Source: Verrucomicrobiota bacterium
GTDB lineage: Bacteria; Verrucomicrobiota; Verrucomicrobiia; Chthoniobacterales; UBA10450
Reading direction: 5' to 3'
Length of the DNA stretch: 34,351 nt
Assembly (NCBI GenBank): GCA_003221295.1
Contig: QHRA01000185.1
Location: 1 to 34,351, forward strand
How positions within the stretch are numbered: position 1 is the first letter of the stretch; each line of letters starts with the position of its first letter. The position numbers and the translations under genes were made by a program. Shown here in pieces: positions 21,129 to 21,519 of this stretch. Under the pieces are notes generated by a model. It did not search any database, was not told where the DNA came from, and saw only the letters and a list, made by a program, of their open reading frames with translations.

Positions 21129-21150
21129 TGCGCGATACTGGGTTCGAACC
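21129..21150 (-). repeat. Displaced tRNA-Val 3' end with CCA (22-bp direct repeat)
   Basis: This is identical over 22 bases to the 3' end of the intact tRNA-Val (21448-21469): TGCGCGATACTGGGTTCGAA plus CC on the plus strand. It lies 319 bases further along on the same strand. Unlike the intact gene it is followed by CCA on the minus strand. It sits just past the end of the GIY-YIG frame. Confidence 0.9.
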
Positions 21151-21194
21151 CCCGCCTGCATCCCTACGCGAAGCGTTGCGGGCGCGGAGTGACT

Positions 21195-21431
21195 CTAACT
21201 GGCCAAGCGCCCCTTCAAATAGGCTCGGCCCAATCCACTCTTGAGCTGCTACTCCCGGTGGCGGGCGTTGGCTTCGAAACGACATGCTTCGTAATACTCC
21301 AAGATCACCGGTCGATGCGCTGTAGCAGGGACGCGGCCAGCCTCGTGCTGGGCGAAGCGATCACGAAGATTAATCGTCGAGCCGACGTAAAAATCGCCGG
21401 CGCTGCATCGTAACACATAAGTGTAATACAT
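21195..21431 (-). pseudogene. GIY-YIG nuclease, interrupted by an amber codon
   Basis: The frame starts at 21431, 16 bases after the tRNA-Val gene, and encodes a single-domain GIY-YIG protein: MYYTYVLRCSAGDFYVGST contains the YYTYV and YVGS motifs, then RDRFAQHEAG and ILEYYEACRFEANARHRE. A TAG at 21249-21251 interrupts it, but the same frame continues as QLKSGLGRAYLKGRLAS to a second TAG at 21195. That is the expected end of such proteins, where the stop replaces the usual Lys (RE-K-QLKSG). Length with the stop ignored is about 78 residues, normal for small UPF0213-like members. These nucleases cut DNA using the Tyr/Arg/Glu site. The gene is likely a recently inactivated mobile nuclease. Confidence 0.85.
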
Positions 21432-21447
21432 TCGCGCGGCTCAAAAA

Positions 21448-21519
21448 TGCGCGATACTGGGTTCGAACCAGTGACCCCTACCGTGTCAAGGTAGTGCTCT
21501 ACCACTGAGCTAACCGCGC
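21448..21519 (-). tRNA. tRNA-Val (GAC)
   Basis: All arms fold: a seven-pair acceptor (GCGCGGT with ATCGCGC, one G-T), D stem GCTC/GAGC, anticodon stem CTACC/GGTAG with loop TTGACAC (anticodon GAC), five-base variable loop, T stem ACTGG/CCAGT with loop TTCGAAC, and discriminator A. The gene is 72 bases and CCA is not encoded; TTTTT follows directly on the minus strand. Confidence 0.97.

What the first reader, a model, noticed from the sequence alone, without database searches (positions are those of the whole stretch)
21129..21519. tRNA-Val with a GIY-YIG gene flanked by a direct repeat of the tRNA 3' end: a candidate minimal tRNA-inserting unit
A complete tRNA-Val (no encoded CCA) is followed 16 bases later by a single-domain GIY-YIG nuclease gene. 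A 22-base exact repeat of the tRNA 3' end, this time with CCA, lies 319 bases from the first copy. The simplest reading is insertion into the T arm region of a CCA-encoding tRNA gene. The unit brought a replacement 3' end and pushed the original one downstream, as integrative islands do, but with only a nuclease of about 78 codons and no integrase.
Basis: partly seen in the sequence, partly recalled or inferred. Interest (0 to 1): 0.78.

Follow-up and report, generated by a model that had tools for sequence, protein, structure and literature searches.

The report
Tiny nuclease elements inserted in tRNA genes
A roughly 300-base unit made of one small GIY-YIG nuclease gene plus a hairpin has inserted into a bacterial tRNA gene and left it working by supplying a copy of the tRNA's own end; the same design recurs at about a dozen kinds of tRNA gene in many bacterial phyla, which looks like an overlooked class of very small mobile elements.

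Summary
On the minus strand the window carries tRNA-Val(GAC), then a GIY-YIG ORF 16 nt later, then an exact 22-nt copy of the tRNA 3' end, this one followed by CCA. Corrections: the ORF has an in-frame TAG at codon 61, so this copy is probably dead.

Both proposed tests were run. Relatives without the nuclease have an intact, CCA-encoding tRNA and no second repeat (G002, G009; also G048 against G067, and G504 against G222). In the family sample, 13 of 14 GIY-YIG genes lying 60 nt or less 3' of a tRNA have the repeat; none of the loci without a linked tRNA showed one. The same anatomy occurs in Verrucomicrobiota, Bacteroidota, Chloroflexota and others, at Asn, Val, Arg, Met, Pro, Lys, Ala, Thr and further tRNAs. 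It includes head-to-tail arrays and a mirror class that duplicates the tRNA 5' part.

Best reading: a homing-type, target-restoring mobile element with only a nuclease. Insertion is shown by comparison; nuclease-driven homing is inferred. The closest precedents are mitochondrial atp6-type mobile ORFs and phage SegB, a GIY-YIG enzyme that cuts tRNA genes. I found no description of these bacterial elements in the open-licence papers searched.

The parts
21448..21519 (-). tRNA-Val(GAC), intact cloverleaf, no encoded CCA
   Evidence: ARAGORN; Rfam RF00005 69.1 bits; identical 72/72 to the empty-site tRNA in G002
21448..21469 (-). proximal copy of the repeat: tRNA 3' end (T arm + acceptor) in the working tRNA, inferred to be supplied by the element
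   Evidence: the repeat finder; flank comparison
21432..21447 (-). 16-nt gap between tRNA and ORF
   Evidence: sequence
21249..21431 (-). GIY-YIG nuclease ORF (60 aa, ending at an in-frame TAG); degenerate copy
   Evidence: Pfam PF01541 E=3.5e-11; intact relatives
21195..21248 (-). continuation of the same frame after the TAG (QLKSGLGRAYLKGRLAS, then stop), homologous to the C terminus of intact relatives
   Evidence: (match 21195-21431, 2 TAG)
21151..21182 (-). palindrome/hairpin at the element's end, abutting the distal repeat (CCCGCAACGCTTCGCGTAGGGATGCAGGCGGG; two changes from the form in G009, G013 and G017)
   Evidence: pattern search; covariation in homologous units
21129..21150 (-). distal, displaced copy of the tRNA 3' end
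   Evidence: followed by the flank native in G002/G009
21126..21128 (-). CCA encoded after the displaced copy: the original tRNA 3' terminus
   Evidence: same junction CGCGCACCATC in G002 and G009

Best explanation
The window holds a decayed member of a large class of minimal mobile elements of about 300 bp that target bacterial tRNA genes. Each unit consists of (i) a copy of the target tRNA's 3' part, (ii) a short gap, (iii) one single-domain GIY-YIG nuclease gene of about 80-90 codons, and (iv) a palindrome. Insertion within the tRNA gene, at the anticodon loop, variable region or T arm according to isotype, leaves the tRNA complete because the unit supplies the 3' part; the original 3' part is displaced downstream, behind the palindrome. 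A mirror class supplies the 5' part instead. Shown by comparison: the anatomy, presence against absence at matching flanks, isotype specificity that is conserved on the nuclease tree, repetition in tandem, decay of the displaced copy only, and a covarying hairpin. Inferred: the nuclease cuts an unoccupied tRNA gene of its isotype, and break repair copies the unit in from an occupied allele (homing). The ORF is probably transcribed with the tRNA. The palindrome probably marks or protects the element end.
For: Empty sites: the window locus against G002 and G009; G067 against G048, 308/311 identical in the right flank, precise absence of the Asn unit; G222 triple array against G504. Generality: all three GIY-YIG genes of this genome follow tRNAs, and two (Val, Pro) have the repeat. 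Repeat present at 13/14 and 42/50 close-linked genes. Further isotypes and a mirror class. 319-nt tandem units in a single-contig genome. Isotype changes on the tree: 27 against a shuffled mean of 64 (minimum 58 of 200), in hosts of several phyla. Hairpin covariation, together with the T stem: 53 double-changed cells against 13.8 +/- 3.4 shuffled, 0/500; the hairpin itself has 5 of 8 pairs changed on both sides. The displaced copy's acceptor pairing is worse in 8 of 49 loci and better in none. Nuclease: invariant Y, Y, G, R, H, E and K; confident single-domain fold, pLDDT 95; folds like UPF0213 and Slx1. Precedent: the GIY-YIG enzyme SegB cuts inside tRNA genes at RAWTSGAAC (PMC13096335). Its reverse complement GTTCSAWTY matches the T-arm sequence (my reading).
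Against: No cleavage or mobility was observed. The restored tRNA keeps the complete target sequence, so a tRNA-only recognition site would not be destroyed by insertion; either the flank is part of the site or immunity works otherwise. Empty sites could also arise by deletion between the direct repeats. The window's own nuclease is broken. Single-domain GIY-YIG proteins lack the separate DNA-binding domain of classical homing enzymes such as I-TevI. A large share of the GIY-YIG genes sampled is not tRNA-linked.
Confidence: 0.72

Rival explanations
1. Structure-specific variant of the same idea: the nuclease recognises hairpin or branched DNA (the palindrome and the foldable tRNA gene, as cruciforms or single strands) rather than a sequence, and the unit moves by cutting at the foot of hairpins, somewhat as IS200/IS605 elements do with a different enzyme.
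For: Covarying hairpin immediately before the displaced part in most units; nearest solved folds include Slx1, a branched-DNA nuclease; in many units the palindrome stands where the anticodon arm would be; tRNA copies with only the palindrome in place of the arm in G048 and G017.
Against: Isotype specificity is strongly conserved on the tree, which suggests sequence recognition; no Y1 transposase or single-strand intermediate is known here.
Confidence: 0.2
2. The unit is a passive passenger: a tyrosine integrase acting in trans, or from a lost helper island, integrates a small circle carrying a tRNA 3' end, and the nuclease is incidental.
For: The repeats resemble att identity segments; the window's tRNA-Val site also hosts larger inserted DNA in G009.
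Against: No integrase was identified at the loci examined; the nuclease is present in every unit found (they were found by it) and its phylogeny tracks the tRNA isotype; a mirror class duplicates the tRNA 5' part; no relatives found in plasmid or phage records.
Confidence: 0.07
3. Not mobile: a tRNA-processing or tRNA-damage module (for example a nuclease acting on its neighbouring tRNA, with the distal tRNA-like copy as decoy), arisen by tandem duplication of the tRNA gene.
For: The distal piece is tRNA-like enough for Rfam to score it in L165 and L141; the ORF is probably co-transcribed with the tRNA.
Against: Displaced copies decay, lose pairing or are truncated; patchy presence at near-identical loci; tandem arrays.
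Confidence: 0.06
4. Chance or assembly artefact of metagenome bins.
For: Many of the genomes are draft metagenome bins.
Against: Chance expectation 4e-8 for the window repeat; same anatomy in isolates, e.g. Elizabethkingia, Parapedobacter and Verrucomicrobium sp. BvORR034, and in a single-contig genome.
Confidence: 0.01

Closest known systems
Mobile endonuclease ORFs (mORFs) of fungal mitochondria: Allomyces macrogynus atp6; Glomus atp6, atp9, cox2, nad3 (PMC3630166)
   Same: An endonuclease ORF inserts into a gene, supplies a replacement 3' part that keeps the gene working, and pushes the native 3' part downstream as a duplicate.
   Different: Here the targets are bacterial chromosomal tRNA genes, the unit is only about 300 bp, the nuclease is a single GIY-YIG domain, a conserved palindrome marks the end, and a mirror class replaces the 5' part.
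SegB of phages T4/T6 (GIY-YIG homing endonuclease of the tRNA region; PMC13096335)
   Same: A GIY-YIG enzyme encoded beside tRNA genes that cuts inside tRNA genes; its motif matches the T arm.
   Different: SegB is a phage protein beside a tRNA array; no target-restoring tRNA-end duplication or palindrome was mentioned in the passages I read.
Integrative islands and satellites at tRNA genes
   Same: A direct repeat of the tRNA 3' end flanks the insert; the tRNA is restored; head-to-tail arrays form.
   Different: No integrase, no cargo, about 300 bp, only a nuclease; the mirror class duplicates the tRNA 5' part.
Group I introns in tRNA genes
   Same: Insertion in the tRNA, often near the anticodon; homing endonuclease ORF.
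   Different: No ribozyme match in Rfam and little room for one; the tRNA is complete without splicing.
IS200/IS605 and REP/RAYT systems
   Same: A short palindrome at the element end; the Val-type palindrome also occurs dispersed in some genomes (G033, G092).
   Different: GIY-YIG nuclease instead of Y1 transposase; tRNA targets; duplication of the target end.
UPF0213 and Slx1 GIY-YIG proteins
   Same: Nearest solved folds (1zg2, 1ywl, 6seh).
   Different: Those are housekeeping or repair proteins (my knowledge), not known to be linked to tRNA insertion.

Membership tests
Homing endonuclease gene | Nuclease domain of a homing family with conserved catalytic residues | tested here: met
   PF01541 hits; invariant Y5, Y15, G17, R25, H29, E61, K65 in 27 units. 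The window copy itself is truncated by TAG.
Homing endonuclease gene | Insertion at a conserved, specific target, present or absent at cognate sites | tested here: met
   Empty/occupied pairs; isotype conserved on the tree
Homing endonuclease gene | Insertion interrupts the recognition site, so the occupied allele is resistant | tested here: inconclusive
   The tRNA sequence is fully restored; only the native 3' flank is separated from it
Homing endonuclease gene | Nuclease-dependent super-Mendelian transfer | not testable with these tools
   Needs cleavage and transfer assays
Mitochondrial mORF (target-restoring endonuclease ORF) | Duplicated 3' part of the target: new part in the working gene, native part displaced beyond the ORF | tested here: met
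   Window against G002/G009; L178
Mitochondrial mORF (target-restoring endonuclease ORF) | Protein-coding mitochondrial host gene | tested here: not met
   Hosts are bacterial tRNA genes
Integrase-driven tRNA island | Integrase gene within the element | tested here: not met
   Unit is 319 nt with one GIY-YIG ORF; the 319-nt tandem units of L241 likewise
Integrase-driven tRNA island | att-like direct repeat of the tRNA 3' end | tested here: met
Group I intron | Intron ribozyme core | tested here: not met
   No Rfam match other than tRNA in 9 sources
IS200/IS605 or RAYT | Y1 HUH transposase | tested here: not met
   Only a GIY-YIG ORF in the unit
IS200/IS605 or RAYT | Terminal palindrome adjoining the target sequence | tested here: met

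The most novel reading that the evidence does not exclude
A previously undescribed, pan-bacterial class of the smallest autonomous mobile elements (about 300 bp: one single-domain nuclease plus one palindrome) that spread by cutting tRNA genes and restoring them, using a structure-assisted mechanism (palindrome and foldable tRNA gene) unlike known homing or transposition.
Probability: 0.3. Interest if true: 0.95.

Novelty: new variant of a known kind. Interest (0 to 1): 0.85.

Why it matters
If the homing reading is right, these are among the smallest mobile elements that encode their own enzyme, and they live in genes the host cannot afford to lose by handing back an equivalent tRNA end. They would explain partial tRNA duplicates next to small 'GIY-YIG nuclease' annotations in many bacteria. 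They offer a natural set of compact nucleases, each fitted to one tRNA isotype, and a bacterial counterpart of the mitochondrial mORFs. How a target that is fully restored escapes recutting is a clean question that can be tested.

Tried and rejected
A 13-sequence alignment was too diverse for collection scanning, so the Asn subfamily was used; the collection-wide sample is therefore biased to relatives of that subfamily. Viral contigs gave no convincing relatives; plasmid and phage records gave no match to a Bacteroidota unit protein. Rfam gave only tRNA. A MAFFT alignment of all right ends mixed the two palindrome positions, so subsets were used; the Asn-only subset is too invariant to test covariation. 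Considered and rejected: chance repeat, assembly artefact, group I intron, integrase island, Y1 element. A second set (GIY-YIG 90-173 nt 3' of intact Gly, Ser or Glu tRNAs, mostly with CCA, no repeat) was not counted as support. Literature searches found precedents but no description of these elements; most subscription papers and preprints were not covered.

Full report
Observation. All features lie on the minus strand. tRNA-Val(GAC) occupies 21448-21519. After 16 nt an ORF begins at 21431; Pfam calls it GIY-YIG (E = 3.5e-11). The tRNA 3' end GGTTCGAACCCAGTATCGCGCA recurs exactly, 319 nt away at 21129-21150, followed by CCA, which the tRNA itself lacks. The chance expectation is about 4e-8. 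Two points were missed at first reading. The frame has a TAG at codon 61 and continues as QLKSGLGRAYLKGRLAS to 21195, so this copy is broken. A palindrome, 21151-21182, abuts the distal repeat; cleaner versions of it stand at the same place in relatives.

Empty sites. In G002 (same genus; flanks 90-94% identical) the same tRNA, 72/72 identical and with encoded CCA, is joined to the same neighbouring gene without nuclease or second repeat. G009 keeps the window's distal junction CGCGCACCATCATAAG directly after its tRNA-Val. So the distal copy with its flank is the original tRNA end, and about 319 nt was gained between the two copies. In another genus, G067 carries units at adjacent tRNA-Met and tRNA-Asn genes. 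G048, identical at 308 of 311 positions in the right flank, lacks the Asn unit precisely. G504 is empty where G222 has three units. Loss by recombination between the repeats would give the same empty form, so polarity is not proven in each case; the spread over many tRNAs argues for gain.

Generality. The window's own genome has three GIY-YIG genes, all 3' of tRNAs. Val and Pro show the repeat; Gly, at 125 nt, does not. Among 76 GIY-YIG loci of the family and order, 14 lie within 60 nt 3' of a tRNA and 13 of these have the repeat; the loci without a linked tRNA showed none. A collection-wide scan with the Asn subfamily gave 80 loci; 50 lie within 60 nt of a tRNA and 42 of them have the repeat, with a median length of 34 nt. 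Hosts include Verrucomicrobiota, Bacteroidota, Planctomycetota, Chloroflexota, Thermodesulfobacteriota and Aminicenantes, with isolates such as Elizabethkingia and Parapedobacter. Isotypes include Asn, Val, Arg, Met, Pro, Lys, Ala, Leu, Thr and Cys. The repeat starts at a position characteristic of the isotype: mostly 34 in Asn, 44-46 in Val(TAC), 43-45 in Arg. The window's Val family has relatives at tRNA-Val(CAC) in two other genera, L093 with an intact ORF.

Arrays and mirror class. L241 shows tRNA-Arg(CCT) followed by three head-to-tail units of about 319 nt in a single-contig genome. At tRNA-Ser(CGA), and at a tRNA-Asn, the nuclease lies 5' of the tRNA and the tRNA 5' part is duplicated upstream, followed by a palindrome. 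In both classes the palindrome abuts the displaced tRNA part, and the ORF side faces the restored tRNA.

Palindrome. In most units a stem of about 6-8 bp ends 0-2 nt before the displaced repeat. In 21 Bacteroidota and Chloroflexota units the hairpin plus T stem is 96% paired, with 53 double-changed cells against 13.8 expected (0/500 shuffles); 5 of the 8 hairpin pairs changed on both sides. Before the palindrome many units keep a few bases resembling the host tRNA's D arm or anticodon arm. The reason is unknown.

Which copy works. The proximal 3' acceptor strand pairs with the 5' strand at 340 of 343 positions, the displaced one at 322. The displaced copy is worse in 8 loci and better in none. 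In L178 the proximal copy makes a wobble pair and lacks CCA, while the displaced copy pairs perfectly with the host 5' strand and has CCA, as expected if the proximal end was imported.

Nuclease. Putative catalytic residues are invariant in 27 units. The AlphaFold2 model of the Val-type protein is a confident single domain (pLDDT 95). Nearest solved folds are UPF0213 and Slx1; I-TevI's catalytic domain is weaker. On the tree, tRNA isotype changes 27 times against a mean of 64 for shuffled labels. So specificity is inherited with the nuclease, and the Asn type, for example, occurs in several phyla. With 89 columns many forks are unresolved.

Mechanism. I favour homing: the nuclease breaks an empty cognate tRNA gene, repair from an occupied allele copies in the unit, and the tRNA is rebuilt with the unit's copy of its end. 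SegB, a phage GIY-YIG enzyme, cuts inside tRNA genes, with motif RAWTSGAAC (PMC13096335); its reverse complement reads like the T arm. The same logic with protein genes is described in fungal mitochondria (PMC3630166). The unexplained step is immunity, since the tRNA is restored in full. Recognition may need the native 3' flank, or the structure-assisted rival may be right. None of the biochemical steps was observed.

Novelty. The principle is known from mitochondria. The bacterial tRNA version, its size, its palindrome, its mirror class and its breadth were not found in the open-licence library searched. I therefore file it as a new variant of a known kind.

Noticed in passing
window 13137-13182 (-): A 46-nt, 93% identical fragment of the tRNA-Val(GAC) 3' part, 8.3 kb from the tRNA and without a 5' half; possibly the trace of another insertion at this tRNA.
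   Followed up: partly
L261 (G009:C105:9800-25500): At the window's tRNA-Val site G009 carries about 9 kb of extra DNA between the tRNA and a relic of the GIY-YIG unit (partial ORF, palindrome, displaced repeat); no integrase was recognised among the listed ORFs, which were not searched against families.
   Followed up: partly
L104 about 1360-1420 (G048) and L268 about 600-760 (G017): tRNA-Asn and tRNA-Val copies in which the palindrome stands in or next to the anticodon arm, with no nuclease gene; possible scars of lost units.
   Followed up: partly
L262-L267 (G033, G092): The Val-type palindrome CCGCGCCCGCAACGCTTCGCGTAGCGATGCGGGCGGG, or close forms of it, also occurs at dispersed sites away from tRNAs, like a REP sequence.
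   Followed up: partly
L008, L050, L062, L070, L057, L073: A second set: GIY-YIG genes 90-173 nt 3' of Gly, Ser or Glu tRNAs, mostly with CCA encoded, without any tRNA-end repeat.
   Followed up: no
L016 (G067:C38): Two different units, at tRNA-Met and tRNA-Asn, sit side by side in neighbouring tRNA genes.
   Followed up: yes
L033, end of the ORF: In the Asn type the ORF's stop codon TAG coincides with the start of the D-arm-like stretch that precedes the palindrome.
   Followed up: no
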